Origin: Achromobacter pestifer
GTDB taxonomy: Bacteria > Pseudomonadota > Gammaproteobacteria > Burkholderiales > Burkholderiaceae_B
NCBI RefSeq assembly: GCF_013267355.1
Contig: NZ_CP053985.1
Location: 6,324,001 to 6,388,000 of the forward strand
Direction: 5' to 3'
DNA: 64,000 nt
This document shows, piece by piece, positions 5,991 through 22,092 of this stretch. Position numbers and translations under genes: made by a program. The notes beneath the pieces are model-generated. The model saw only the letters and a list, made by a program, of their open reading frames with translations. It was not told the DNA's origin and made no database searches. How positions within the stretch are numbered: the first letter of the stretch is position 1; every line of letters begins with the position of its first letter.

Positions 5991-6398
5991 ATGAAAGTGA
6001 AACACCTGTTAGGCCCGGCAGCGCTCGCGCTGTCTTTGCTGGTCGCCGCGCCGGCGGTGGCGGCGCCTACCGATCCGGCGCCCATCATCACCGGGAAGCA
6101 ATGGACGGAGTCCGACGCGAATCTGAAGAAGGCCTACCTCCTGGGCATGGCGAACCTCATCCAGGTGGAGCAAGCCTATCAGCAGCGCCGCGCGCCGGCT
6201 GACAATCAGACGCTGATCCCGCGTTTCGCCAAGGGCTTGCAAAGCCATACGCTCGATTCCGTGCGCGAACGGCTGGATAGCTGGTACGCGGCCAATCCGA
6301 CCCGGATGGACCGGCCCGTGGTCGAAACGCTCTGGTTCGAAATCGTCGCGCCCGCGGCGCCGGCCACGCCGGCCGCTCCCGCCAAGCGCGCCCGCTAG
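5991..6398 (+). CDS. Small exported protein of unknown function
   Basis: 135 residues. An AAGGAG SD sits a few bases upstream of the ATG. A clear Sec signal covers about residues 1-24 (MKVK, hydrophobic core, AVAA end). The mature part is mainly helical and charged, with LLGMANLIQVEQAYQQR and a C-terminal Ala/Pro tail ending KRAR. I do not recognise a family. It is followed nine bases later by a small glycine-zipper lipoprotein, so the two may form an envelope pair. The function is unknown. Confidence 0.7.
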   Translation: MKVKHLLGPAALALSLLVAAPAVAAPTDPAPIITGKQWTESDANLKKAYLLGMANLIQVEQAYQQRRAPADNQTLIPRFAKGLQSHTLDSVRERLDSWYAANPTRMDRPVVETLWFEIVAPAAPATPAAPAKRAR

Positions 6399-9624: not shown

Positions 9625-10569
9625 TTATCCGTGCTGGTCTTGGCCGAGGTGCTGCGCGAACCAATTGGCCGCCGCGCTGCTGGTGCGTTCGAAATGTTCC
9701 GTATAGACCGAGTAATGGCCGCCAGGCAGCAGCAGCAATTCCTTGGGCTGGTGCGCCGCGTTGAACGCGTCCTGCTGCAGGTCAGCGGGCGTCAGGCCGT
9801 CGCCCGTGGCGACGATCATCAGGAGCGGCGTGGGCGCGATGCGGCGCACGTACATGCCCGGCTCATAGGCGCGCGCCAGTTCCAGCGAACGCAGCGTGAC
9901 TTCGTTGACCCAGCTCGGGCAACGGCGCGCTTCCCCGGTCATGTAGTTGTAGGAATCCGGGCCCGGATACGCGACCGCCGCATCGGGATCGGCGTCGACC
10001 ATGCGCAGCGTTACCGGCGGCTGGCCCGCGTCGCGCGCCTCGCGGTCGGATTCGAAGGCGGCCTGCAGCGCCTGCGCCTTGTCGTAGCGCACGCGCCGTT
10101 GCGCCGCCGAGTAACCGCTGGTGGTGGGAACCTGGCTGACCACGCACTTGACGCGCCGGTCGATGGCGGCAACCGTCAGCGCATGACCGCCGCTATAGCT
10201 GCTGCCCCAGATGCCAATGCGCTCGCGGTCCACTTCAGGACGCTGGCGCAGATAGGAAATGGCCGAGCGGAAATCCTGGATCTGCCGCTGTGGATCGATC
10301 TCCTGGCGCGGCATGCCTGCGCTGCGGCCGAGATTGCGGAAGTCAAAGGTCAGCGCCGCCAGGCCCCGGGCCACCACTGCGGCGGCGTACTCTTCCAGGT
10401 CGCCGCCGGCGACCATGGACCAGCCGTGCGCGAGCGCGACCGCGCCGACCGGGCCACTGGCGTGTTCCGGCCGGTAGAAGGTCCCGCGCACCAAATCCCC
10501 TTCAACCAGGAATTCAATCGGCTCTGCCGATCCTTTAGGGCCTGATCGTTCTGGCATAGATGGACTCAT
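9625..10569 (-). CDS. Alpha/beta hydrolase (dienelactone-hydrolase-like)
   Basis: 314 residues from the ATG at 10569, chosen because AAGGAGA lies six bases upstream; the frame extends 24 bases further to a poor TTG. HGW near residues 48-50 gives the oxyanion region and the nucleophile elbow is SYSGG (about 124-128, Ser126). A late Asp in IVATGDGLTP and His in GGHYSVY complete a plausible triad. It is the first gene of the minus-strand operon with the symporter and two SDRs, divergent from the LysR at 10731. The substrate is not identifiable. Confidence 0.86.
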   Translation of the reverse strand: MSPSMPERSGPKGSAEPIEFLVEGDLVRGTFYRPEHASGPVGAVALAHGWSMVAGGDLEEYAAAVVARGLAALTFDFRNLGRSAGMPRQEIDPQRQIQDFRSAISYLRQRPEVDRERIGIWGSSYSGGHALTVAAIDRRVKCVVSQVPTTSGYSAAQRRVRYDKAQALQAAFESDREARDAGQPPVTLRMVDADPDAAVAYPGPDSYNYMTGEARRCPSWVNEVTLRSLELARAYEPGMYVRRIAPTPLLMIVATGDGLTPADLQQDAFNAAHQPKELLLLPGGHYSVYTEHFERTSSAAANWFAQHLGQDQHG

Positions 10570-10669
10570 GCCTGTCTCCTTATCGCTCATCAATGAGCTA
10601 AGCTTTTGTGAACAGGTCGAATTCTGCCCTTCGGGCCAGGCGCGAACAAGCGCTATTATTCACACTATT

Positions 10670-10686
10670 AATCGGCAATTCCGATT
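10670..10686. promoter_or_regulatory. LysR-box-like palindrome between hydrolase operon and lysR
   Basis: AATCGG-CAATT-CCGATT is a perfect six-base inverted repeat with a five-base spacer. It contains ATC-N9-GAT, matching the T-N11-A style of LysR-family sites. It lies in the 161-base gap between the divergent hydrolase operon (start 10569) and the LysR gene (start 10731), where an autoregulatory site would be expected. Binding is inferred. Confidence 0.5.
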
Positions 10687-10730
10687 GTTTTAAGAACAAC
10701 GATTACGCACCCCGCCGGTGCCCCGGAGCC

Positions 10731-11633
10731 ATGGATCTACGCCAATTCGATTGCTTTCTGGCTGTCGCGGACAAGCTGCATTTCGGCCGCGCGGCGGAAA
10801 CGCTGCACATGAGCCAGTCCTCTGTCTCGGAGGCGGTCAAGGCGCTGGAAAAAACGCTGGGCGCCCCCTTGTTCGAGCGCAGCAGCCGCCGGGTCGCGCT
10901 GACGCCGCTGGGGGTAACCCTGAAGCTGGGCGCCGGACCGGCCGTCATCATGCTGAAAGCCGCGCTGGACGACTGCAAGCGCCAAGCTGCGGGCAAGGCG
11001 CGCCATCTGCGCATCGGCTTTCTCGGCGGCGGCTTCTACGAGCTATACCGCCCGCTGGTCTCGGAATTCAAGGCGGCGCATCCCAACGTGGAGCTGGAGT
11101 TCGTGGAACTGACCTACGTCACCCACTACGCGGCGGTGGCCGACGGTTCGGTCGATATCGCGTTCTGCCGTTTGCCGCTGGGCGCGGACGGCCTGTGCCA
11201 TGGGCCCATCGTGCTGCGGGACCAGCGCATGCTGTGCGTTCCGCTGGATCACCCGTTTGCCGGGGCGACGCTGCTGGACCCCGAACTGCTGGCCGAGGAA
11301 CGGCTGGTGCGCATGGTGCCGGGATCGGTCAACCAGGAGTGGCAGGACTACCACTTTCCCCGCCACACCCCTAAGGGCAAGCCCATCGGCGACGGCCCGG
11401 TGGTGCGCACGATCCGCGAGGGCATCGCGGCCGTGAACACGCGCGAGGGCCTGTTGATGCTGACCAAGCGCGCTGCCAGCTATTACGCCACGCCCGAGAT
11501 CGCGTTCGTGGAAATAGACCTGCCCGCCATGCCCTCGGCGCTGGTCAGGCGGGTGGACGACCACCGGCCCATCCTCCAGGAACTGGAAGCCTTGCTGCTG
11601 CGCATCGCCGAGCGGCATGGGGTGGCAGCCTGA
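10731..11633 (+). CDS. LysR family transcriptional regulator
   Basis: 300 residues. The winged HTH MDLRQFDCFLAVADKLHFGRAAETLHM begins at the first residue, so the ATG at 10731 is right although the frame is open further upstream. The effector domain covers about residues 90-295. It is divergently transcribed from the hydrolase/symporter/SDR operon, which it probably controls, with a palindrome at 10670-10686 between them. Confidence 0.9.
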   Translation: MDLRQFDCFLAVADKLHFGRAAETLHMSQSSVSEAVKALEKTLGAPLFERSSRRVALTPLGVTLKLGAGPAVIMLKAALDDCKRQAAGKARHLRIGFLGGGFYELYRPLVSEFKAAHPNVELEFVELTYVTHYAAVADGSVDIAFCRLPLGADGLCHGPIVLRDQRMLCVPLDHPFAGATLLDPELLAEERLVRMVPGSVNQEWQDYHFPRHTPKGKPIGDGPVVRTIREGIAAVNTREGLLMLTKRAASYYATPEIAFVEIDLPAMPSALVRRVDDHRPILQELEALLLRIAERHGVAA

Positions 11634-11675
11634 GCCGGACCGCGAGGCCCGGACCGCCACTTTTATCAAAGCGGA

Positions 11676-12353
11676 TCAGCGCTGCGAATCCAGCACTTCG
11701 TTTTTCTTCACCACTTCCTGCGCCTTGGAGTAGCTCTCGATCAGCAGCTGGTAGGCCGGGAACACCTTGGTATAGACCTCGGCCCACTGCATGGCGTCTT
11801 CGCGGTTCCAGGTCTTCTGCAGCTCGGAGGCCACGGCGGCGGTGTCCATCGGCACCACCCCGGCCTGCACCACGCGCGCCAGCGTGATTTCCTGCGCCAT
11901 CTTGGTATAGGTGCCCGAGGCGTCGATCACCGCGAATACCTTGTAGCCGGCGGCGACCGCGCTGATGGCCGGAAACGCCATGCACACGCTGGTGATGGTG
12001 CCGGCGATGATGAGCGTCTTGCGGCCGGTGGCCTTTACCGCCGCGACGAACTCGGGATTGTCCCAGGCGTTGATCTCGCCCTTGCGCGCAATGTATTGCG
12101 CATGCGGCGCGTTGGCGTGGATCTCGGGAATCAGCGGACCGTTCGGGCCTTGCGGCACGGAAGCCGTGGTGATGACAGGCATCTTGGCCAACGTGGCCAT
12201 CGACGCCAGCGCGCCGGCGCGGGCGCGCAATTCAGGCATGGGCATGTCGCCCACGGTCTGGAACAGGCCGCTCTGGTGGTCGATCAGCAGCATGACGGCG
12301 TCGTCGGCATCGATGACGGGGCGCTGGCCGTTGAAGTTGGCGGGTGCGGACAT
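11676..12353 (-). CDS. Isochorismatase-family (YcaC-like) hydrolase
   Basis: Cysteine hydrolase, 225 residues. [12 protein letters not shown] holds the catalytic Asp, GTITSVCM the catalytic Cys, and [12 protein letters not shown] is typical of the YcaC branch. An SD (AGGAG) precedes the ATG. It is divergent from the LysR at 12497, and a paralogous arrangement occurs at 21451-23215. The substrate is unknown; YcaC itself lacks a proven physiological reaction. Confidence 0.88.
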
Positions 12354-12423
12354 GGAGTACTCCTAATTTGAAAAGTCGACGGCACTGTTGCCGAATCACA
12401 AGCCTGATGGCTGCACAAATATT

Positions 12424-12479
12424 AAAAATAGAACAAAATTGGCGGAAGACCGATTTTTTGCTATCAGAGTTCTATTTTT
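12424..12479. promoter_or_regulatory. Long inverted repeat in isochorismatase/lysR divergent promoter
   Basis: AAAAATAGAAC at 12424-12434 and GTTCTATTTTT at 12469-12479 form a perfect 11-base inverted repeat separated by 34 bases, in otherwise AT-rich DNA between divergent genes. The right arm ends 17 bases before the lysR ATG. The likely role is two half-sites for the LysR product encoded at 12497. The same 11-mer recurs at 33461-33471. Confidence 0.55.
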
Positions 12480-12496
12480 TGAACTAAAGGCGCGAC

Positions 12497-13402
12497 ATGC
12501 AGGATCTCAACGACCTTTTCTATTTTGTGCAGACCGTGGAGCACCAGGGTTTCGCACCCGCCGGGCGCGCGCTGGGGATGCCGAAATCCCGCCTCAGCCG
12601 CAGGCTGGCGCTGCTGGAGGAACGGCTGGGCGTGCGGCTCATCCAGCGCTCTACCCGCCACTTCATGGTCACCGACATCGGCCAGACCTACTACGAGCGC
12701 TGCAAGGCGATGCTGGCCGAAGCCGAGGCCGCCCAGGAAGTGATCGACGCGGCCCAGGTCGAACCGCGCGGCGTGATCAAGCTGACCTGCCCCATCGCCC
12801 TGCTGCACACCCATGTGGGCGGCATGCTCGCGGACTTCATGCTGAAGTACCCGCGCGTCGTCATCCAGCTCGAAGCCACCAACCGCCGGGTCGACGTGCT
12901 GGGAGAAGCCGTGGACGTGGCGATCCGCGTGCGCCCGCCTCCGCTGGAAGACAGCGAGCTGGTCATGCGCGTGCTGTCGGACCGGGGGCAGAGCCTGGTG
13001 TCCAGCCCCGCACTGGCGGCCGAATGCGGGCTACCAGCAAGCCCGGACGACCTCGGCGCCTGGCCAAGCCTGGCGCTCGGCGCGCCCAACCAGGCCTATC
13101 GCCTGGAGCTGTACAAGCAGGACGGCCAGCAGGCCACGGTATCTCTCGCCCCCAGGATGATCACCACCGACATGATCGCGCTGCGCAACGCGGCAGTGGC
13201 CGGCGTGGGCGTGGTGCAGCTGCCCACCATGATGGTGCGGGAACAGCTGCAAGCGAGACAACTGGTCCGCCTGCTGCCGGACTGGGCGCCGCGCCGCGAA
13301 CTGATCCATGCCGTATTCCCGTCGCGGCGCGGCCTGCTGTCGTCGGTACGGGCACTGGTGGATTATCTGGCGGAGCGCTTCGGCAAGCCGCATGAAGACT
13401 AG
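12497..13402 (+). CDS. LysR family regulator (paralogue of 22304-23215)
   Basis: 301 residues. The N-terminal HTH is MQDLNDLFYFVQTVEHQGF and the effector domain contains TNRRVDVLGEAVDVAIRVR, typical of the DmlR/YafC-like branch. It closely matches the regulator at 22304 along its length, and both are divergent from isochorismatase-family genes. Its stop overlaps the convergent dioxygenase gene by four bases (13399-13402). Confidence 0.91.
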   Translation: MQDLNDLFYFVQTVEHQGFAPAGRALGMPKSRLSRRLALLEERLGVRLIQRSTRHFMVTDIGQTYYERCKAMLAEAEAAQEVIDAAQVEPRGVIKLTCPIALLHTHVGGMLADFMLKYPRVVIQLEATNRRVDVLGEAVDVAIRVRPPPLEDSELVMRVLSDRGQSLVSSPALAAECGLPASPDDLGAWPSLALGAPNQAYRLELYKQDGQQATVSLAPRMITTDMIALRNAAVAGVGVVQLPTMMVREQLQARQLVRLLPDWAPRRELIHAVFPSRRGLLSSVRALVDYLAERFGKPHED

Positions 13403-14334
13403 CCGGTGTTGCTGATGAAGTACTCAGGCATCTCCGGTCCCCACATGTAGAGCGCATCCTCTGGCGGATAGTCCCCTGCCGGCCAATCGTATCCCGCCGG
13501 CACGTAGTCGATGTGGGCAGAGTATTCCCAGAACGATCCCCAGGGATCGCGCACGTAGTAGAAGTAGTTCGAACCCAGCGTGTGGCGCGCCACGCCCCAG
13601 CCCTCCGGATAGCCGGCGGCCCGCATCTGCTCGGAGCCGCTGCCGACCTCTTCGATGCCCGGCACGTCCCAGGCGCTATGGTGCCAGCCCGGCGCGCGGT
13701 CCTGCACAAAGGCCAGCAGATGATGGTCCGAGCCGTGCCTCCCGTGCATGAAGGCGACAATATCGCGCGAGCGATCCGACAGGTACAAGCCCAAAGCCTG
13801 GGCGTAGAACGCCAGGCTGCGCTCCAGATCCGTGGTGAAGAGCAGCACGTGGGACAGCCGCGTCGGACTGACCGCGGCCCTTGCGGACCGGCCCAGCGCA
13901 CCCCGCTGGCCAGGCGCGATTTGCACGCAGGCATTGCGACTCTTGGTATGGGGCGTGGTCTTGGGCCCCGCCTTGATCTGCAGCAGATTTCCGTCGGGGT
14001 CCAGGCACCAGAAACCCTCGCCTGCTGCCGCGGGGCTCTGGGCCCCCGCCGGCCGTGCGCCCTGGGCATAGGCCTGCGCCTTGATTGCCTCGAACTCGTC
14101 GCCGTGACAGTTCAGGCTCAGGTACGCCAGGCGCTTGGAGCCTTCGCCCACGATGCGCGCCCAGCAATGCTCGTCGCCCGCGCAGCGCAATTCCAGCCCG
14201 CCGGCGTTCGGCCGGACGTCCAGGCCGAACGCCGTCAGGAATTTCGCGGCTTCCGCCAGATCGGGCACGATCAGGGCGAAATGATCGATGGAATGCACCC
14301 CGTAGCGCGCGGCGTTGGCTTTGTTGAAGGACAT
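13399..14334 (-). CDS. Extradiol (type I, VOC-fold) ring-cleavage dioxygenase
   Basis: 311 residues with two VOC modules, typical of catechol 2,3-dioxygenase-like enzymes. In the C-terminal module the iron ligands are all visible: His162 (LSHVLLF), His218/219 (GWHHSAW) and Glu270 (SFWEYS). The ATG at 14334 is chosen because GGGAGA lies just upstream. It should cut a catechol next to the hydroxyls, giving a 2-hydroxymuconic product. It follows the TfdB-like hydroxylase gene and the FAH-family gene on the same strand, forming a hydroxylation, meta-cleavage and hydrolysis series. The exact catechol is unknown. Confidence 0.9.
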   Translation of the reverse strand: MSFNKANAARYGVHSIDHFALIVPDLAEAAKFLTAFGLDVRPNAGGLELRCAGDEHCWARIVGEGSKRLAYLSLNCHGDEFEAIKAQAYAQGARPAGAQSPAAAGEGFWCLDPDGNLLQIKAGPKTTPHTKSRNACVQIAPGQRGALGRSARAAVSPTRLSHVLLFTTDLERSLAFYAQALGLYLSDRSRDIVAFMHGRHGSDHHLLAFVQDRAPGWHHSAWDVPGIEEVGSGSEQMRAAGYPEGWGVARHTLGSNYFYYVRDPWGSFWEYSAHIDYVPAGYDWPAGDYPPEDALYMWGPEMPEYFISNTG

Positions 14335-14363
14335 GGCTCGTTCTCCCTTGGAACAGTGTCCGC

Positions 14364-16163
14364 TCAAGACAAGGCGGCTTCAGTCACGGCGCGCGCGCCA
14401 AGGCTGGCGCGGGCCTGCCGGCCCAGTACGCCTTGCAAGGCGTCCAACAACTCCGCCGCCGCCTGACGCTCCTCAGGCACGGCATGCTTGCGCCAGGCCA
14501 CATGGCGGTCCGGGCGCACCAGCAGGCAGCCCGACTCCGACACTTCCCGCAGCCGCGCCCAGTCGCCGTAGATGTCCAGCACCTCGCAACCCGCCCCTAT
14601 GCTGTACACCGGAAGGTCGATGCCCAATACGCTGGCGGCTTGCGCTGCAGCCGTGCGCCAAACCTGGTCCGTACGCCCAACCAGCAGGGCGAAGCACCCG
14701 TGCCCGGCCAGATCCAGCGTGGAAATCCGGCGTTGCCCCTGCTCCACCCAGGCATGCGGCAAGGACGCGCCCGGGAAGGTCGTGGCCTGATGATAGAGCT
14801 CACTATCGCGCTCGGACGGCCGGCTCGCGCTGCCATCAGGCACGATGGCCGAAGAGGCATACATCTGGCCGAGTTCGACGCCATGGCAGTTGAATTGGTA
14901 ATTCTGCAACGCCACGGCTGCGTCCAGCTGCCCGCGGCGCTCGCGGCCGCGGTCGCTGTCGCTGAAAAGCTCATCGAGATTGGCCCAGCCTTCCTGCGCC
15001 GACTGCCCCGGCGTGAAACCGATGGCATCAGCGATGGCCTTCATGTCATTCACGGACTTCATGGCCCGGTCCACCACACCGCGCGCGACGGGCTGGCGTT
15101 CCTGGGTGTACGTGTCGAGCAAGCCCGGGCCGGCCTGGCCCTTCAGGACCAAGGCAAGCTTCCACGCCAGGTTGAAACCATCCTGGATCGAGGTGTTGGT
15201 GCCAAGGCCGTTGGCCGGCGGATGGCGGTGCGCGGCATCGCCCGCCAGGAACACCCTGCCCTTGCCCATTTCGCGCGCGGCGATGTGGTTGATCTGCCAT
15301 TTGTTGGCCGACTTCACTTTCACGGGAATGTCCGGCACCCCGATCACCGCGCGGGCGCGGGCCACGATGGCGTCCTCGCTCAGATCCGGCTCGCCCTTGG
15401 ACTTGTCGTACATGGAGAGCATGATCCATTCGTTCCAGGGCCGCACGCAGACAAAAGTGCCGCTGCCAAACCAATAGCTGTTGCCCGGCTCGGCCATCCA
15501 GTAGAGTACGCCGGGGCGATGCTGCACATAGGGCGCCAGCTCCACTTCCAGCCAGCAGCTGATGGCCGCCCCCAGCCCCATTTCCCCGTCGAATTCGAAG
15601 CCCAGCTGTTTCGCCACCAAGCTGTTGCCGCCATCGGCGCCCACGGCGTACTGCGCTCGGACGCGGATTTCCTCGCCACTGATCGTGTCCACCATCTCGG
15701 CGACCACCCCGCCCGCATCCTGGCTGATGGTCTTGAGTTCGGTATTGAAAAGGAATTGCGCGCCGTGCTCGCGCGCCGCTGTCAGGATGATGGGCTCCAG
15801 CAGGTGCTGCGGAATATTGCACATGCCACAAGGGCTGGCCTTGTCGTAGTCTCCGCGCCGCTGGTCCCCGCCGCCCCAGGTTTGCAGACGCGCCAGCTCC
15901 TTGCCCGCAAAGCTCGTGGCCCAGACGTTGTTCAGCATCAGCGCGTTGGGCGTGGCCTGGGCCCGCACCCGGTCCTCGATACCCAGGTCGCGCATCACTT
16001 CGATGGTGCGCTGATTGGTAATGTGCGCTCGCGGCGAATTGGCGGTGCCCGGGTAACGCGTGATAGCCAGGGTCTGGATGCCGTACTTGGCCAGCAAGGC
16101 CGTCGCCGCCAAGCCTGCAGGCCCGGCCCCGACCACGAGGACGGGGATCTCGATTTCTTTCAT
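14364..16163 (-). CDS. FAD-dependent aromatic hydroxylase, TfdB-like (phenol monooxygenase)
   Basis: 599 residues. The FAD dinucleotide motif VVGAGPAGLAA is at 10-20, the second FAD/NADPH motif VGADGGNS at 174-181, and GDAAHRHPPANGLGTN starts at 308. The phrases SPRAHITNQRTIEVMRDLG and YWMAEPGNSYWFGSG match the 2,4-dichlorophenol 6-monooxygenase (TfdB) branch as I know it. It would hydroxylate a phenol ortho to the OH, giving a catechol. The start has GGAGAGAG immediately upstream. It lies between the FAH-family gene and the extradiol dioxygenase gene. Chlorophenol specificity is not implied by the sequence alone. Confidence 0.9.
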   Translation of the reverse strand: MKEIEIPVLVVGAGPAGLAATALLAKYGIQTLAITRYPGTANSPRAHITNQRTIEVMRDLGIEDRVRAQATPNALMLNNVWATSFAGKELARLQTWGGGDQRRGDYDKASPCGMCNIPQHLLEPIILTAAREHGAQFLFNTELKTISQDAGGVVAEMVDTISGEEIRVRAQYAVGADGGNSLVAKQLGFEFDGEMGLGAAISCWLEVELAPYVQHRPGVLYWMAEPGNSYWFGSGTFVCVRPWNEWIMLSMYDKSKGEPDLSEDAIVARARAVIGVPDIPVKVKSANKWQINHIAAREMGKGRVFLAGDAAHRHPPANGLGTNTSIQDGFNLAWKLALVLKGQAGPGLLDTYTQERQPVARGVVDRAMKSVNDMKAIADAIGFTPGQSAQEGWANLDELFSDSDRGRERRGQLDAAVALQNYQFNCHGVELGQMYASSAIVPDGSASRPSERDSELYHQATTFPGASLPHAWVEQGQRRISTLDLAGHGCFALLVGRTDQVWRTAAAQAASVLGIDLPVYSIGAGCEVLDIYGDWARLREVSESGCLLVRPDRHVAWRKHAVPEERQAAAELLDALQGVLGRQARASLGARAVTEAALS

Positions 16164-16243
16164 GTCTCTCTCCAAATTCCTACCAGGACCGGTATGGCCG
16201 GCCTCTAGCGGTATCCAATAATGTTCTTACCCGGCGGCAGGCA

Positions 16244-17083
16244 CTAACGCTCCAGGGAAATGGGGTTGCGCAGCGTGCCCACGCCTTCGATCGACACTTC
16301 GCAAACATCGCCGTCCTGCATCAGCAGGCGCGGCTCGCGCGCCCAACCCACGCCCGAAGGGGTGCCGGCAACGATGACATCGCCCGCTTCCAGCGTGAAC
16401 GCTTCGCTCAATAGCGAAATCAAGGTGGCCACGTCGAAAACCATGTCGCGCGTATTGGCCGACTGCACCACCTTGCCGTTCAGCCTGGTTTCCAGCGCCA
16501 GGCCCGCGCCGCCCGGCGGCAGTTCGTCCGCGGTGACCAGCGCCGGGCCGAAACCGCCCGTGCCGTCGAAGTTCTTGCCGACGGTCCATTGGGGCGACTT
16601 GAACTGGTATTCGCGCACCGAACCGTCATTGAAGATCGAATAGCCCGCCACGTGCTTGAGCGCATCCTCCTTGCTGATGTAGCGGCCGCCTCCTGACAGC
16701 ACCACGGCCATCTCGCCTTCGTAATCCAGGGAGTCGGACGACTTGGGACGGATCATGGGCTGTTCATGCGCGATCAGGCTGCTACTGAAGCGGTTGAACA
16801 CCGTGGGGTACGCAGGCTGTTCGAATTTGCTTTCCGCGGTGTGATCGGAATAGTTCAAGCCGATACAGATGATCTTTCCAGGATTCGCCAATGGCGGCAG
16901 GTACTGGATTTCCTTCAGGGCGAAACGCTTTCCGGCCGGCGCACGTTCGCGTGCAAACGCAGGCAGGTCCGTTTTTTGACGCAGCAGGTCCAGCAGTTCA
17001 TGCTGGCCGAGGCTGATCACCTGGTCGCCTTCCAGGATTCCGAGATACTGCCCGTTGCCATGGGAAAAGCGTATGAATTTCAT
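16244..17083 (-). CDS. Fumarylacetoacetate hydrolase (FAH) family protein
   Basis: 279 residues. LANPGKIICIGLNYSDH (His81), the metal ligands Glu122 and Glu124 in DYEGE, Asp153 in FNDGSVRE, and the C-terminal VIVAGTPSGVGWAREP are the FAH fingerprint. Family members cleave C-C bonds in acylpyruvates or decarboxylate/hydrate meta-cleavage products. As the first gene of a unit with a phenol hydroxylase and an extradiol dioxygenase, it likely processes the ring-fission product. It is divergent from the GntR regulator at 17291. Confidence 0.9.
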   Translation of the reverse strand: MKFIRFSHGNGQYLGILEGDQVISLGQHELLDLLRQKTDLPAFARERAPAGKRFALKEIQYLPPLANPGKIICIGLNYSDHTAESKFEQPAYPTVFNRFSSSLIAHEQPMIRPKSSDSLDYEGEMAVVLSGGGRYISKEDALKHVAGYSIFNDGSVREYQFKSPQWTVGKNFDGTGGFGPALVTADELPPGGAGLALETRLNGKVVQSANTRDMVFDVATLISLLSEAFTLEAGDVIVAGTPSGVGWAREPRLLMQDGDVCEVSIEGVGTLRNPISLER

Positions 17084-17201
17084 GATGAGCTAGACGTCCT
17101 TGATGAGCGATGTAGCGCCGCGCCCGCGCGGCAGGCGCCGGGCCGGATGGGCGCTGCGGCGTGCCGGTCCATCCTGCAAATCAGTATAGGCATTTTTATC
17201 T

Positions 17202-17235
17202 ACAAATCAATGAAAATATATATTTATGGATTTGT
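17202..17235. promoter_or_regulatory. AT-rich inverted repeat between FAH operon and gntR
   Basis: ACAAATC (17202-17208) and GATTTGT (17229-17235) are a perfect seven-base inverted repeat around a very AT-rich centre, in the 207-base gap between two divergent genes. This is where the operator and both promoters would sit. It is a candidate site for the GntR product encoded at 17291; binding is inferred. Confidence 0.4.
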
Positions 17236-17290
17236 CGATTTTGACGCCCACGCGTAAAATTCCCATGCCCAACCCGGATCTGTTTCTTCC

Positions 17291-18010
17291 ATGCCTCAAC
17301 CGATCGCCGCCGACCACGCCCCAGGCCATGCCACGCAGCAACTCACGCAGGCGTCGGTGCTCACAGCCGCCATCCAGGAAGACATCATTGCCGGCCGGCT
17401 GCTGCCCGGCGCCAAGCTCAAGCTGAAGGAACTGGCGTTGCGCTACGGCACGGGTGTGAATCCGCTGCGCGAGGCTCTCTCGCGTTTGGCCACCACTGGC
17501 TTCGTCAATGCCGAGGATCAGCGCGGATTCAGCGTCAGCCGCACATCCCGCGAAGAACTGCTGGACATCACCCAAACCCGCCAACGCATCGAGTCCGACG
17601 CGTTGCGCGCCTCCATAGCGCACGGCGATATCGAATGGGAAGGCCGGGTGCTGGCTGCCCTGCACCGGCTGAACCGGCAACCGATGATGCTCACTGAGCC
17701 CGAAGGCCTGAATCCCGCTTGGGAAATCGCGCACGACGCCTTTCACGAGGCCTTGCTATCGGCCTGCCCCTCGCGTTGGAGCATGCGTTTTTCCCTGATC
17801 CTGCGCCAGCAGACTGCGCGGTATCGCAATCTTTCGGTCATGGGGCCGGCAGAGGCCGGCGCCCGCGACGTGCAAACCGAGCACGAAGCCATCGCCAAAG
17901 CCGCCCTCGCCAAGAATGCCGACCTGGCATGCGCCCTCCTGTCCGAGCATCTGCGCCTGACCACCGCGCTGGTGCTCGAACATGCCGAGCGTCTGGGGAA
18001 TGCGCGCTAG
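17291..18010 (+). CDS. GntR family (FCD/FadR subfamily) regulator
   Basis: 239 residues. The winged HTH spans about 25-85 (AAIQEDIIAGRLLPGAKL, VNPLREALSRLATTGFV), followed by a helical FCD effector domain with the metal/ligand His pattern (AHDAFHEAL, EHEAI, LSEHL). It is divergent from the FAH/hydroxylase/dioxygenase operon and convergent, with a four-base gap, to the formylglycine-generating enzyme gene. It probably represses the aromatic operon until a pathway acid binds. Confidence 0.9.
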   Translation: MPQPIAADHAPGHATQQLTQASVLTAAIQEDIIAGRLLPGAKLKLKELALRYGTGVNPLREALSRLATTGFVNAEDQRGFSVSRTSREELLDITQTRQRIESDALRASIAHGDIEWEGRVLAALHRLNRQPMMLTEPEGLNPAWEIAHDAFHEALLSACPSRWSMRFSLILRQQTARYRNLSVMGPAEAGARDVQTEHEAIAKAALAKNADLACALLSEHLRLTTALVLEHAERLGNAR

Positions 18011-18014
18011 CACC

Positions 18015-19097
18015 CTAACGCTCTTGCGCGTTCCAGTCCGCCGCGCTCAACGCCAGGCGGAATCCGACGTTGGACGCACTGCTATATGGGTCTTGCCCCT
18101 GCCTCGCGCTTACCCTATAGCCTTCGCAGTAATCTTCGCTGCATAGGAACGAACCGCCACGGATGACGCGCTTGGGCGCCTCGGGCCTGACCATGGCGGG
18201 GTCGTAGGGCGCCGCGGGTCCAGCAGGATTGCGTACCGTCCTTTCCTGCGACTGCTGGCGAAACGCATCGGGGCGATACCAGTCCGCTACCCACTGCCAC
18301 GCGTTGCCCGCCATATCGCGCACGCCGTAGCCGTTCGCCGGATAGCTGCCCACCGGTTCGGTACCCGGCATGATCTTGGGCGACTGCATGGGAAAAGCTC
18401 GGCTCGCGTCCCAGGTGCGCGCCATCGGCTTGCCATCGGGCCGCGGGTTTGTCCCCCAGGCAAAGTCCACCTGCTCCAGGCCGCCGCGGGCAGCGTACTC
18501 CCATTCGGCCTCGGTCGGCAGACGCTTGCCCGCCCAGGCCGCATACGTCTGGGCGTCCTCGTACGAAACCTGGACCACCGGATGCTCATCCTTGCCAGCG
18601 ATGTCCGAGCCCGGCCCCTGCGGCTGCCTCCAACTGGCGCCCGGTGCAAAACGCCACCAGCGCGCATAGTCGTTCAAGTCGACGGGCTTGCTGCTGCCCA
18701 CGAACACCAGCGCGCCTGGCACCAGTCGGGCGGGACGCGGCGTGCCCGCGGGCAGATGCACACGGATGGTGTCCCAGTCGGGCGTGCGCTCCGCCGTGGT
18801 CACATAGCCGGTCGCGGCCACGAATCTGGCGAAATCCCGATTCGTCACGTGGTCGCGATCTATCCAAAACCCGGCCAGGCGCACCGGATGCGCAGGCCGT
18901 TCATTGGCCTGCGAGCGCGGACTGTCGCTGCCCATCAGGAAATCGCCAGCCGGAATCCACATCATGCCTGCGGGTCCGCCGCGGCCATCGCCCAGCTGCC
19001 CCGCCTGCGGCCCCGCGCCTGGCAGGAGATACATCCCCGCCGCCGCAATCCCGCACAGAAGCGCGGCCGCGGTCCATGCATGTTTCATCGTGAGCAT
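18015..19097 (-). CDS. Formylglycine-generating enzyme (SUMF1/FGE family), sulfatase-maturing
   Basis: 360 residues, with an N-terminal hydrophobic signal/anchor (about 5-25) and the FGE-sulfatase domain from about residue 44 (MMWIPAGDFLMGS). RLPTEAEWEYAARGG and MAGNAWQWVADWY are family signatures. The copper-binding/catalytic cysteines are both present, Cys319 and Cys324, in RGGSFLCSEDYCEGYR, with the spacing of human FGE, so it is probably a true oxidase. Its gene follows the sulfatase gene by about seven bases, fitting maturation of that enzyme. The start could be the ATG at 19088 instead. Confidence 0.9.
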   Translation of the reverse strand: MLTMKHAWTAAALLCGIAAAGMYLLPGAGPQAGQLGDGRGGPAGMMWIPAGDFLMGSDSPRSQANERPAHPVRLAGFWIDRDHVTNRDFARFVAATGYVTTAERTPDWDTIRVHLPAGTPRPARLVPGALVFVGSSKPVDLNDYARWWRFAPGASWRQPQGPGSDIAGKDEHPVVQVSYEDAQTYAAWAGKRLPTEAEWEYAARGGLEQVDFAWGTNPRPDGKPMARTWDASRAFPMQSPKIMPGTEPVGSYPANGYGVRDMAGNAWQWVADWYRPDAFRQQSQERTVRNPAGPAAPYDPAMVRPEAPKRVIRGGSFLCSEDYCEGYRVSARQGQDPYSSASNVGFRLALSAADWNAQER

Positions 19098-19103
19098 GGA
19101 TGG

Positions 19104-20816
19104 CTAATGCTGATCGACGATCTGGCGCGGTACGCCGCGGCGCCAATCGAAGTAGTTGAAGAGCTGGGCTGCCAGATATTGACTATCCCACGCGATAACG
19201 CGATTGGCGTCGCTCCAGGCTTTATACTTGCCCGCCATCTCCTTGACGATCTCCGGGTGCCGGGCGGCGAGGTCTTCGGTCTCCCCCCGATCCGCGTCGG
19301 TATCGTAGAGCTGCCAGCCGGCGGTGCCGAAGGGTTCGGGCAGCCAGCTCAACTTCCACTTGCCCATCCGGTACTCCTTGTTGCCGAAAAGCTCGGCGCC
19401 CCGCTCGAAGTCCGGCGCGCGCGCGGATGCCGCGCTGCCGTCCAGTACCTTCAGGAACGACCCGCCCTTCAAAGGTTCCAGCGGCACGCCCTTGCGCGTT
19501 TCGCCGCGGCTTGCTCCCGCCATGGCCGTTACGGTCGGGAAGATGTCTTCTACCCCCAGGTAACCGTCATTCATCGCGCCGGGCTTGGCCACCATGGGAC
19601 CTTTGACGATAAGCGGAGAAATCGTGCCGCCTTCGGTCATGACCAGTTTGAAGAGCTTAAAGGGCGCGGAACTGGCATAAGCCCAGCCTGGCCCCACGCC
19701 CGCGAACGACCCGGGCGCGCCCATGTTCTTGAAGGATGTATCGAACTCCTTGGCGATCCAGCTGCCGTCCGCGTTTCCCGGATAGAAATCCATATACGCA
19801 GCCGACGGGCCGTTGTCCGAAAAGAAGAAGATCACCGTGTTGTCGTACTGGCCGCTGCGCTTGAGCTGGTCGATGACCCGCCCGACATTGGTGTCCAGGT
19901 TGCTCACCATGCCGGCGTAGATTTCCATGACGCGCTCCTGGCGGGCACGCTCGTCCGGAACCAGATCCTTCCATGGCGTGAACAGGGGCGCCGGCTCGGA
20001 CATGCGCGTGCCGGCGGGGATGACCCCAAGGCGCTGCATGTTCTCGAACATCCGTCTGCGATGCACGTCGTAGCCGTCCGCGAACTTGCCCTGGTATGGG
20101 GCGATGTCGGCCGCGGGCGCATGCAGCGGGTCATGCACTGCCTGGAACGCCAGATAGCCGAAGAATGGCTTGCCTGCTTGCTGGGCGGCCTGCATGTAGT
20201 CAACGAAACGGTCGGTGTAGAGATTTGACGAGAACTCGCCCGTGTCGCGCGCCACCGTCTTGTCATCCTCGACGAAGCGCGTACGCGGCTGTACCGCCAG
20301 CAAGCCCTTATTGTCCCAGTGGCTGCCCCCTGGATTGATCAGGGCGAACGAACGCTCGAAGCCTCGCGCCCCTGGCAACTGCTCTGGCTTGCCACCCAGA
20401 TGCCACTTGCCCGCCATGAAGGTCGCGTAGCCGCGCTCCTTGAGCACTTCCGCCAACGTGTTGACCCGATCGTTAAGCGAACCTATGTAATTGCCCGGGT
20501 GCTTGTCCATCTCGGGAATGCGGTATTCGCCCATGGCGCCCATGCCGGCCAGATGATTGTCCACACCGGTGAGCAACTGCGCGCGGGTCGGCGAACAAGT
20601 TGGATTGACATGGAAATTGGTGAAACGCATGCCTTCCTGCGCCAATTGCTGGAGCGCGGGAGTCTTGATCACGTCCTGTCCGAACGGCTGGATGTCGTTG
20701 TAGCCCAGGTCGTCGGCCAGGATGATGAGCACATTGGGAGGTGGCGGGCTGGCTCCTAGCACGGGCGTGGCACACGCCAGGCCGGCCGCCAGGATGATCG
20801 CGGAAAAGCTTTTCAC
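19104..20816 (-). CDS. Exported type I (Cys-type) arylsulfatase
   Basis: 570 residues, GTG start with GGAGA eight bases upstream. A Sec signal covers about 1-22. The metal-site Asp pair is LADD (35-36). The modification motif CSPTR starts at Cys74, the residue converted to formylglycine, and GKWHLGG is the second sulfatase signature. It hydrolyses sulfate esters in the periplasm. The FGE gene directly downstream should activate it. Being next to phenol-hydroxylase and ring-cleavage genes, it may release phenols from aryl sulfates for that pathway; this is inference. Confidence 0.92.
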   Translation of the reverse strand: MKSFSAIILAAGLACATPVLGASPPPPNVLIILADDLGYNDIQPFGQDVIKTPALQQLAQEGMRFTNFHVNPTCSPTRAQLLTGVDNHLAGMGAMGEYRIPEMDKHPGNYIGSLNDRVNTLAEVLKERGYATFMAGKWHLGGKPEQLPGARGFERSFALINPGGSHWDNKGLLAVQPRTRFVEDDKTVARDTGEFSSNLYTDRFVDYMQAAQQAGKPFFGYLAFQAVHDPLHAPAADIAPYQGKFADGYDVHRRRMFENMQRLGVIPAGTRMSEPAPLFTPWKDLVPDERARQERVMEIYAGMVSNLDTNVGRVIDQLKRSGQYDNTVIFFFSDNGPSAAYMDFYPGNADGSWIAKEFDTSFKNMGAPGSFAGVGPGWAYASSAPFKLFKLVMTEGGTISPLIVKGPMVAKPGAMNDGYLGVEDIFPTVTAMAGASRGETRKGVPLEPLKGGSFLKVLDGSAASARAPDFERGAELFGNKEYRMGKWKLSWLPEPFGTAGWQLYDTDADRGETEDLAARHPEIVKEMAGKYKAWSDANRVIAWDSQYLAAQLFNYFDWRRGVPRQIVDQH

Positions 20817-20901
20817 AATTGGTCTCCATTAGTGCGGCCGGCGGCCGCTCGAGGTCGTCTCTGCGACCTTCGGCGTCATTTTACTTATTTATATATTTTT
20901 T

Positions 20902-20932
20902 TCTATAAAAACCATTTTTTTAATTTTATAGA
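20902..20932. promoter_or_regulatory. AT-rich inverted repeat upstream of sulfatase
   Basis: TCTATAAAA (20902-20910) and TTTTATAGA (20924-20932) are a perfect nine-base inverted repeat 13 bases apart, in a very AT-rich stretch about 90 bases upstream of the sulfatase GTG. It is a candidate operator or promoter region for the sulfatase/FGE pair. The rest of the 260-base gap (20817-21076) shows no gene I can support. Confidence 0.4.
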
Positions 20933-21076
20933 TTTCGACGGCCAGCCATCCGCCCCACGCTTGAGGCGCGTTGCCAGAAGGCCTGTTCTGCTTCGGGGAT
21001 GAATGGATGGCAAGCTTTGCGCGTAGGCTTGCCCGTTCAAGGCCTGCGTCATTGCAGGCGCCGAACGTTGGAAGGG

Positions 21077-21450: not shown

Positions 21451-22092
21451 TTACTCGTCGCGGTCGTAGGAGAATTGGATCGCAGGCGTTCCGCCCGTTT
21501 CGATAAAGAGGTTCATGAAGGCCGGCACGGTCTCGCTGCGCTTCCAATCCCGCTGCAGTTCGCAGAACAGTTGCACCGTAGAGATAAGCTTGCCACCTGC
21601 CTGTTCAATACGACGCAGCGCAGCCTCGTGCGCCGCCACCGACGTGCCGCCCACGGCATCCACCGGAACGTAGACCTCGTAGCCTTCCGCCAGCGCATCG
21701 AGTGCCGGGAAAGTCAGGCACGCCTCTGTCCACAGAGCCGTCATGATGAGCTTTTTGCGGCCGGTTTCCCGCACCGCCGTGCGGAACTCCACGTCCTCCC
21801 AGCTGTTGATGCTGGTGCGGTCGTATGTCGGATAGCTACCCAGCACCTTCTGCACGTGAGGGACCGGCGGCTTGTTGAGCCCCGTCTTCACATTGACCGT
21901 GGAATGCACTATCGGCAGCCCGTAAGCGACCGCACCTTTGGCGCAGCCAACAATGTTATTCAGCATCAATTGCCGATCCATCGACGCGATCGAGTTCACT
22001 TGTACCGGCTGGTAGTCAATGATGATGAAGGCCGAGTTCTGCGGCGTTAACAATTGATCCGCCTTGGGATCGCGAATGGCTTCACTAGTCAT
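21451..22092 (-). CDS. Isochorismatase-family (YcaC-like) hydrolase
   Basis: 213 residues. SAFIIIDYQPVQ carries the catalytic Asp and TALWTEACLTFPAL the catalytic Cys. INSWEDVEFRTAVRETGRKKLI is typical of the YcaC group. It is divergent from a LysR gene at 22304 that is paralogous to the one at 12497, itself divergent from another isochorismatase-family gene. The substrate is unknown. Confidence 0.88.
   Translation of the reverse strand: MTSEAIRDPKADQLLTPQNSAFIIIDYQPVQVNSIASMDRQLMLNNIVGCAKGAVAYGLPIVHSTVNVKTGLNKPPVPHVQKVLGSYPTYDRTSINSWEDVEFRTAVRETGRKKLIMTALWTEACLTFPALDALAEGYEVYVPVDAVGGTSVAAHEAALRRIEQAGGKLISTVQLFCELQRDWKRSETVPAFMNLFIETGGTPAIQFSYDRDE

What the first reader, a model, noticed from the sequence alone, without database searches (positions are those of the whole stretch)
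13399..20816. Island combining arylsulfatase, its maturase and a phenol-to-meta-cleavage pathway
Seen: extradiol dioxygenase, TfdB-like hydroxylase and FAH-family genes on one strand; a divergent GntR; then FGE and type I sulfatase genes. Known: sulfatases release phenols, phenol hydroxylases make catechols, extradiol enzymes cleave them and FAH enzymes process the product. Inferred: the island takes an aryl sulfate ester to central metabolites, with the periplasmic sulfatase providing the phenol. I do not know a described locus with this exact set.
Basis: partly seen in the sequence, partly recalled or inferred. Interest (0 to 1): 0.7.

Follow-up and report, generated by a model that had tools for sequence, protein, structure and literature searches.

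The report
Sulfated-phenol degradation cassette in Achromobacter
Six neighbouring bacterial genes, which appear to be inherited together and perhaps switched by one regulator, probably strip sulfate from an aromatic compound and then break its ring open for food; the parts are known kinds, joined in an unusual way.

Summary
In detail: six intact genes at 13399-20816 encode an extradiol dioxygenase, a TfdB/HbpA-type flavin hydroxylase, an FAH-family hydrolase, a divergent GntR/FCD regulator, a two-cysteine FGE and an AtsA-type cysteine sulfatase with a signal-like N-terminus. They form one inherited block: two congeners carry the empty site, A. xylosoxidans A8 carries the block at the same site, and A. 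pulmonis carries exactly these six genes (76% DNA identity) elsewhere. The FAH-hydroxylase-dioxygenase core occurs without sulfatase in 18 of 18 loci of other, mostly Burkholderiaceae, genomes, so the sulfatase-FGE pair is a lineage-specific addition. A motif trained on GntR/FAH promoters of other genera ranks the core and sulfatase promoters highest in each of three Achromobacter loci, which suggests co-regulation; but at the window's sulfatase promoter the match is not significant once AT-richness is discounted. Paracoccus pTAV3/pFER3 and Pseudomonas pND6-1 join other sulfatase-FGE pairs to other ring-cleavage routes. Best reading: a cassette that desulfates an aryl sulfate outside the cytoplasm, hydroxylates the phenol, cleaves the ring and hydrolyses the product (closest characterised core: hcdABC). 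Substrate and regulation are untested. New variant of a known kind; moderate interest.

The parts
13399..14334 (-). Type I (VOC) extradiol ring-cleavage dioxygenase (DIOX)
   Evidence: Pfam Glyoxalase 80.7 bits; NCBIfam HpaD and catechol 2,3-dioxygenase below cut-off; PDB 3b59; H161, H217, E269 invariant in 15 aligned sequences. The listed ORF runs to 14367 (TTG); the ATG at 14334 is my choice of start.
14364..16163 (-). Class A FAD phenol hydroxylase, TfdB/HbpA type (HYD)
   Evidence: PF01494 and PF21274; PDB 6u0p '2,4-dichlorophenol 6-monooxygenase' 589 bits, 2-hydroxybiphenyl 3-monooxygenase 511 bits. The listed ORF runs to 16175 (TTG); the ATG at 16163 is my choice of start.
16244..17083 (-). 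Fumarylacetoacetate-hydrolase-family hydrolase (FAH)
   Evidence: PF01557 219.9 bits; HpaG and diketo-rhamnonate hydrolase models below their cut-offs; PDB 6iym
17291..18010 (+). GntR/FCD transcriptional regulator, divergent from FAH
   Evidence: PF00392 and PF07729; relatives (49-57%) near the same core in other genera, divergent from FAH in 11 of 18 core loci
18015..19097 (-). Formylglycine-generating enzyme with hydrophobic N-terminus (FGE)
   Evidence: PF03781 257 bits; both active-site cysteines align with PDB 6s07/5nxl; all 120 listed homologues (the window's own included) keep GGSxxCxxxxC and 115 of 120 have a hydrophobic N-terminus by a simple hydropathy rule
19104..20816 (-). Cysteine-type arylsulfatase, AtsA-like, with signal-peptide-like N-terminus (SULF)
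   Evidence: PF00884 193 bits; PDB 1hdh 398 bits with catalytic motifs aligned; CSPTRAQLLTG and N-terminus read by eye, no signal predictor run
17183..17260 (.). GntR/FAH intergenic operator-like element (PWM hit 17195-17234; core at 17213-17226; arms ATCTACAAATC/GATTTGTCGAT) with promoter-like matches for FAH (17210-17183) and GntR (17232-17260)
   Evidence: 3 promoter-like matches in the 7.9 kb region against 1.5 expected from shuffles
20878..20928 (-). Sulfatase upstream operator-like element (PWM hit 20889-20928, best in the 64 kb window) overlapping a promoter-like match (20905-20878)
   Evidence: not significant with AT-neutral weights (745 of 2000 shuffles)
13402..20934 (.). Extent of the co-inherited six-gene block (cassette)
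   Evidence: empty site in G125 and G121; same block in A8; only 13404-20741 shared with A. pulmonis

Best explanation
A co-inherited and probably co-regulated catabolic cassette for a sulfated phenol. The exported sulfatase is matured (Cys to formylglycine) by its own FGE, whose hydrophobic N-terminus suggests that it also faces the periplasm. The sulfatase frees sulfate and a phenol outside the cytoplasm. The phenol enters the cell (no transporter is conserved in the block). HYD adds an ortho hydroxyl, DIOX cleaves the ring next to the diol, and the FAH-family enzyme hydrolyses the product into small acids. GntR represses both arms from AT-rich palindromic operators that overlap the FAH and sulfatase promoters, until a pathway compound relieves it. 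Shown by sequence: the genes, their catalytic motifs and the block borders. Suggested by sequence: the shared operator. Inferred: the substrate, the order of reactions, the place of maturation, the repressor role and the inducer.
For: Catalytic residues are present in sulfatase, FGE and dioxygenase. The block has sharp borders: window 13401 abuts window 54546 in G125 and G121, which lack the sulfatase; A8 has 9864-20934 contiguous and then, 110 bases on, 54510; A. pulmonis shares only 13404-20741. Sulfatase and close DIOX occur together in 3 of 43 genus genomes, each time as this block. A PWM trained on 8 GntR/FAH sites from other genera gives the sulfatase promoter 28.3 and the FAH promoter 28.1, next 11.0 in the window; A8 30.3 and 29.3, next 5.6; A. 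pulmonis 30.6 and 30.7, next 7.4. A 14-base degenerate core occurs at 3 places in 7.18 Mb: these two promoters, from which it was written, and the GntR/FAH promoter of a paralogous locus. Other sulfatase-FGE pairs lie beside a TfdB-like hydroxylase, hydroxyquinol-type dioxygenase and maleylacetate reductase in pTAV3 and pFER3, and beside salicylate hydroxylase and catechol 1,2-dioxygenase in pND6-1. HcdABC is a characterised hydroxylase/extradiol/FAA-hydrolase route.
Against: 18 of 18 core loci outside Achromobacter lack sulfatase and FGE. G040 and G115 carry the pair (about 64%) without the core. Of 27 regions around other AtsA-type sulfatases in 21 Pseudomonadota genomes, one has weak hits to my ring-catabolism enzymes (27% and 33%) and one to the aromatic transporter. 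With AT-neutral weights the motif is not significant in 4 of 6 patches, including the window sulfatase (745 of 2000 shuffles) and two FAH promoters, so much of the match is AT-richness; another AT-rich stretch of the same genome scores 19.5. No uptake system is conserved in the block.
Confidence: 0.65

Rival explanations
1. The sulfatase-FGE pair is a sulfur-scavenging unit for assorted sulfate esters that travels with the catabolic core but serves sulfur supply; any released phenol is incidental.
For: The pair exists without the core in G040 and G115, and in the sampled genomes AtsA-type sulfatases mostly lie away from the aromatic genes that I searched for. The best solved relative, 1hdh, is P. 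aeruginosa AtsA, a sulfate-starvation enzyme (organism and role recalled).
Against: The sulfatase promoter carries the best motif hit of the catabolic GntR in the window and A8, and the second best, by 0.1, in A. pulmonis; the six genes share borders at two unrelated sites.
Confidence: 0.19
2. The two arms may share a regulator but not a molecule: the sulfatase acts on a sulfated carbohydrate or other compound found in the same niche, while the core degrades an unsulfated plant phenol.
For: Substrate cannot be read from sequence; the core occurs alone in 18 other loci.
Against: The sulfatase is closest to arylsulfatases, and three other plasmids place such pairs beside hydroxylase and ring-cleavage genes (two of the three are near-identical clusters).
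Confidence: 0.11
3. Chance neighbours with no functional link.
For: The pair and the core each occur alone.
Against: Matching block borders in three genomes, one with unrelated flanks, and the motif ranking.
Confidence: 0.05

Closest known systems
hcdABC of Pseudomonas mandelii 7HK4 (7-hydroxycoumarin route; PMC6222606, passages read, word search)
   Same: FAD hydroxylase, extradiol dioxygenase and FAA-family hydrolase acting in series; HcdC hydrolyses the ring-cleavage product of a trihydroxyphenyl compound but did not decolorise those of the catechols tried
   Different: The paper relates HcdA to MhpA/OhpB, whereas the window hydroxylase is TfdB/HbpA-like (26-29% to three MhpA-type proteins). 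'sulfatase' and 'GntR' do not occur in its main text. Hcd sequences were not held, so identity was not measured.
Paracoccus pTAV3 / pFER3 cluster (L081, L226)
   Same: TfdB-like hydroxylase (45% identity), AtsA-type sulfatase (41%) and FGE (44%) side by side with ring-cleavage genes
   Different: Intradiol hydroxyquinol-type dioxygenase plus maleylacetate reductase instead of extradiol plus FAH; LysR and IclR-type regulators annotated nearby, no GntR in the stretch; FGE without hydrophobic N-terminus (pTAV3). Annotation only; I did not search the literature for this cluster by name.
Pseudomonas putida pND6-1 sulfatase-FGE-salicylate cluster (L040)
   Same: Arylsulfatase with signal-like N-terminus and FGE beside an aromatic-acid transporter, flavin hydroxylase and ring dioxygenase
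   Different: Salicylate 1-monooxygenase and catechol 1,2-dioxygenase (ortho route); porin and MFS present; AraC-type regulator. One search for the plasmid with 'sulfatase' listed one unrelated paper.
Naringenin fde and isoflavone ifc clusters (PMC11303751, PMC11069340; passages read)
   Same: Flavin hydroxylation followed (in ifc and, as cited there, fde) by a glyoxalase-type ring dioxygenase on a polyphenol ring
   Different: 'sulfatase' and 'GntR' do not occur in the main text of the ifc paper; sequences not compared here
Acesulfame sulfatase-amidase cluster of Shinella (PMC11500405; passages read)
   Same: A formylglycine sulfatase placed directly upstream of the genes that degrade the product
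   Different: Not an aromatic ring; FGE genes encoded elsewhere; sulfatase not compared with ours

Membership tests
Formylglycine-dependent type I sulfatase (AtsA-like) | CxPxR signature with catalytic Asp/Asn/Lys/His motifs | tested here: met
   CSPTRAQLLTG; 398-bit alignment to 1hdh over residues 27-548 with aligned ADD, GKWHLG, H, SDNG and K motifs; active-site roles recalled
Formylglycine-dependent type I sulfatase (AtsA-like) | Hydrolysis of aryl sulfates | not testable with these tools
   needs an assay
Copper FGE (SUMF1 type) | PF03781 fold with two active-site cysteines | tested here: met
   120 of the 120 listed homologues keep both
Copper FGE (SUMF1 type) | Cytosolic location, as commonly assumed in bacteria (recalled) | tested here: inconclusive
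   Hydrophobic N-terminus in the window protein and in 115 of 120 listed homologues by a simple hydropathy rule; the pND6-1 and pTAV3 FGEs lack one by eye
Type I extradiol dioxygenase (VOC) | VOC modules and 2-His-1-Glu iron site | tested here: met
   (iron binding itself not tested)
Catechol 2,3-dioxygenase / HpaD / BphC equivalogs | NCBIfam equivalog cut-off | tested here: not met
   49, 62 and 38 bits against cut-offs of 320, 321 and 366
Class A flavin phenol hydroxylase (TfdB/HbpA) | FAD_binding_3 plus Rng_hyd_C, best match to TfdB/HbpA | tested here: met
HcdABC-type three-enzyme route | Hydroxylase, extradiol and FAH-family genes together | tested here: met
HcdABC-type three-enzyme route | MhpA-like hydroxylase | tested here: not met
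   HYD is TfdB/HbpA-like; 26-29% to three MhpA-type proteins. Filed as 'works like', not as a member.
GntR/FCD repressor with shared operator | Same binding motif at both promoters | tested here: inconclusive
   Top two PWM hits in three loci, but not separable from AT-richness at the window sulfatase promoter; binding itself not testable

The most novel reading that the evidence does not exclude
A dedicated, GntR-switched aryl-sulfate mineralisation system in which both the sulfatase and its oxygen-dependent maturase work in the periplasm. The freed phenol would be both growth substrate and inducer. The same idea, a sulfatase-FGE head joined to a ring-cleavage tail, would have arisen at least three times with different tails (Achromobacter, Paracoccus, Pseudomonas).
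Probability: 0.37. Interest if true: 0.62.

Novelty: new variant of a known kind. Interest (0 to 1): 0.47.

Why it matters
Sulfated phenols (plant and animal conjugates, drug metabolites) are common in nature (recalled). Sulfatases are usually studied for sulfur or for glycans, and ring-cleavage pathways usually start from the free phenol (recalled). A regulated cassette that joins the two would give a genetic handle on how bacteria feed on sulfated aromatics. It would also give a testable case of formylglycine formation outside the bacterial cytoplasm.

Tried and rejected
Rejected: that the six-gene set is widespread. The core is, the sulfatase-FGE pair with it is not. Rejected: that AtsA-type sulfatases in general sit by aromatic genes. 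Of 27 regions one (L126) has a 27% hydroxylase and a 33% FAH match and another (L125) a 32% transporter match; 13 control regions have none. My query set has no Rieske oxygenases, two regions are shorter than the rest (L126, L135), and the controls come from 7 of the 21 genomes. A wider search of the order found no other close sulfatase (only self in 399 genomes at 1e-150), so contexts in Ralstonia, Cupriavidus and Comamonas (names) could not be read.

Shared contig lengths among the capped protein lists (compared by eye) suggest FGE and sulfatase on one contig in 9 cases. DIOX and FGE share three lengths (16410, 4519, 2301 bases), of which the short ones may be coincidence; the contigs were not opened. 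In 121 family genomes the next hydroxylase after the window's own is 46% identical, so no further core was found there. Rfam found nothing in 8-28 kb. Flavonoid, isoflavone and coumarin routes were considered as substrates; none is supported beyond analogy.

Errors made and mended: the name 'window' picked up an alignment row, redone. In one search the window sulfatase patch was cut too short (72 of 2000 there), redone (2 of 2000; AT-neutral, 745 of 2000). In other, often AT-richer, Pseudomonadota regions the PWM is not specific (25 hits of 20 or more in 782 kb; that they are AT-richer was not measured). Of 11 divergent GntR/FAH loci 8 passed my core rule and were used for training; L045, L046 and L047 were dropped, and the L047 stretch tested was that of its second GntR/FAH pair, because the script kept the last one. 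The 14-base pattern was written after seeing both window promoters, so those two hits are by construction; only its absence elsewhere and the third hit are informative.
Full report
What is there. The window lies in a 7.18 Mb genome; the closest named protein hits of the dioxygenase are Achromobacter. Pfam, NCBIfam and PDB comparisons give a VOC extradiol dioxygenase, a TfdB/HbpA-type FAD hydroxylase, an FAH-family hydrolase, a GntR/FCD regulator, a two-cysteine FGE and an AtsA-like sulfatase. The sulfatase has the CSPTR signature and, by eye, a Sec-type N-terminus. The genome has 16 sulfatase-domain and 5 FGE-domain matches, so neither family is rare in it.

One block. Of 43 genomes of the genus (the window's included), 3 hold this sulfatase at E <= 1e-100 (window, G156, G137). 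The same 3 hold the dioxygenase at 77% or more, next to it; the other dioxygenase matches are 53% or less. G137 is A. pulmonis ANB-1 by the same reasoning.

DNA comparison gives sharp borders. In G125 and G121, which lack the sulfatase at that cut-off, window 13401 is followed within 36-41 bases by window 54546. In A8 window 9864-20934 is contiguous and is followed about 110 bases on by 54510. In G124 and G157 the left flank is also there without the cassette, but what follows differs (in G124 nothing else of the window in the stretch; in G157 pieces of window 23-55 kb). In A. pulmonis only 13404-20741 is shared (76%), and the genes on both sides are others (LysE on one side; GntR/UTRA, TauE/SafE, alpha/beta hydrolase on the other). 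So the six genes are inherited as a unit at two unrelated sites. I read the junctions but did not search for transposases or repeats there.

Two modules. A scan of one-genome-per-species contigs gave 35 dioxygenase loci. Of the 34 outside Achromobacter, 18 have the FAH-hydroxylase-dioxygenase core (hydroxylase 60% or more; my count), 11 of these with a divergent GntR, and none of the 34 has a sulfatase or FGE hit (tblastn E <= 1e-15, 40% coverage) in the fetched stretch, about 10 kb each side where the contig allowed. In several others the hydroxylase near FAH and dioxygenase is a distant one (28-33%). Plasmid pBB2 has the same genes in another order (hydroxylase 64%). pPHE24 and Paraburkholderia D15 have FAH and dioxygenase with an MhpA-type hydroxylase. 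The core is thus a common and modular unit of mostly Burkholderiaceae genomes.

The sulfatase belongs to a small clade: 33 of the 120 listed relatives are 56-93% identical, and the rest are 53% or less. Of 268 genomes of the family, 5 have a match of 64% or more: the three above and G040 and G115. These two carry the sulfatase with its FGE but no core in the fetched 20 kb; a porin, an RraA-like, an FAH-like (42%) and a styrene-monooxygenase-like gene lie nearby in G040. The sulfatase-FGE pair was therefore joined to the core in, or before, the Achromobacter lineage, as far as these genomes show.

Regulation. In eight GntR/FAH intergenic regions of other genera an AT-rich palindrome (AAAATATATATATTTT or near it, with a following TTTGTAT in six) is conserved. 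A 40-column weight matrix from these eight sites alone was run over three Achromobacter loci. In each, the two best sites are the FAH/GntR intergenic region and the stretch upstream of the sulfatase: 28.1 and 28.3 in the 64 kb window (next 11.0), 29.3 and 30.3 in A8 (next 5.6), 30.7 and 30.6 in A. pulmonis (next 7.4). In 358 kb from 71 further, partly overlapping stretches of Achromobacter genomes the best hits are the window sulfatase site itself (it lies in L002), 23.1 in a paralogous GntR/FAH/dioxygenase locus, and 19.5 and 18.8 in an AT-rich stretch some 800 bases beyond another sulfatase frame of the same genome. Both window sites overlap promoter-like matches (3 found, 1.5 expected), which would suit a repressor.

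Limits of the regulatory evidence. Dinucleotide shuffles of each region never reached the score (0 of 500 for each of six regions). Shuffles inside the AT-rich patch reached it in 2 of 2000 (window sulfatase), 6 (A8 sulfatase), 0 (pulmonis sulfatase), 9 (window FAH), 4 (A8 FAH) and 0 (pulmonis FAH) of 2000. With weights that give no credit for AT-richness, shuffles reach the score in 745 (window sulfatase), 7 (A8 sulfatase), 256 (pulmonis sulfatase), 126 (window FAH), 287 (A8 FAH) and 24 (pulmonis FAH) of 2000. So the match rests largely on composition except in A8 sulfatase and pulmonis FAH; since FAH promoters fail too, the test also has little power. The degenerate 14-mer WAAATATATAWWTW occurs at three places in the whole genome: these two promoters and the GntR/FAH promoter of the paralogous locus at 3.846 Mb. 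The pattern was written after seeing the two window sites. I take co-regulation as likely, not shown.

Independent parallels. pTAV3 and pFER3 of Paracoccus (near-identical clusters by annotation) hold an intradiol dioxygenase (named 6-chlorohydroxyquinol-1,2-dioxygenase in pFER3), a LysR, maleylacetate reductase, a TfdB-like hydroxylase, arylsulfatase and FGE, with beta-ketoadipate genes beyond. pND6-1 holds a porin, arylsulfatase, FGE, aromatic-acid MFS, salicylate monooxygenase, catechol 1,2-dioxygenase, alcohol and aldehyde dehydrogenases. The sulfatases of pTAV3 and pND6-1 are 41% and 39%, and the FGEs 44% and 45%, identical to ours. These records were picked from the best hits of plasmid searches, not at random; other plasmid sulfatase or FGE loci that I opened have no ring-cleavage dioxygenase annotated (those have an FAH-family gene; two searches gave no annotation). 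In an even sample of 398 Pseudomonadota genomes AtsA-type sulfatases are rarely so placed. The parallels show the same design built with different parts.

Mechanism. HcdABC of P. mandelii does hydroxylation, extradiol cleavage and FAA-type hydrolysis in that order. Its FAA-family HcdC hydrolyses the product from a trihydroxyphenyl compound but did not decolorise the catechol-type products tried (PMC6222606, passages). By analogy the window substrate may have a second ring hydroxyl. The FGE and 115 of 120 listed homologues have a hydrophobic N-terminus, unlike those of pND6-1 and pTAV3. If it is an anchor or signal, maturation takes place in the periplasm.

Known or new. Searches for the combination and for periplasmic FGE listed no paper whose title or shown start of abstract describes it; the lists were capped. 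Six papers were opened, for passages only. The library holds open-licence papers only, so absence is weak evidence. Each part is a known kind; the joined cassette is a new variant.

Noticed in passing
L222 (G000:C2:3840000-3856000), site near 6257: Paralogous GntR/FAH/dioxygenase locus (51%, 61%, 48% identity) with the same operator-like motif (32.5) and a second weaker hit (23.1) after the dioxygenase; no hydroxylase hit.
   Followed up: partly
window 20935-54545: Absent between the flanks in A8, G125 and G121 and partly present in G157, so a further insertion to the right of the cassette.
   Followed up: no
window 21451-22092: YcaC-like isochorismatase-family hydrolase just outside the cassette; a 76-84% relative lies near the core in 12 of the 18 core loci outside Achromobacter. 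It may belong to the pathway.
   Followed up: partly
window 18015-19097 and homologues P0121-P0240: FGEs with hydrophobic N-termini (115 of 120 listed) and, in the close sulfatase clade, hydrophobic N-termini in 30 of 33; possible periplasmic formylglycine formation.
   Followed up: partly
L068:13389-14804: TauE/SafE-type exporter close to the cassette in A. pulmonis; a TauE/SafE gene also sits in the acesulfame sulfatase cluster.
   Followed up: no
L040, L081, L226: Sulfatase-FGE pairs inside salicylate and hydroxyquinol-type catabolic clusters on pND6-1, pTAV3 and pFER3.
   Followed up: partly
L041:7202-8746: In A8 an alginate-export-type porin (PF13372) lies directly beside the sulfatase, as in pND6-1; in A8 it lies in the flank that cassette-free genomes share.
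   Followed up: partly
L171 (G040); L172 (G115): Close sulfatase-FGE pair without the core; in L171 near porin, RraA-like and styrene-monooxygenase-like genes; L172 not scanned by Pfam.
   Followed up: partly
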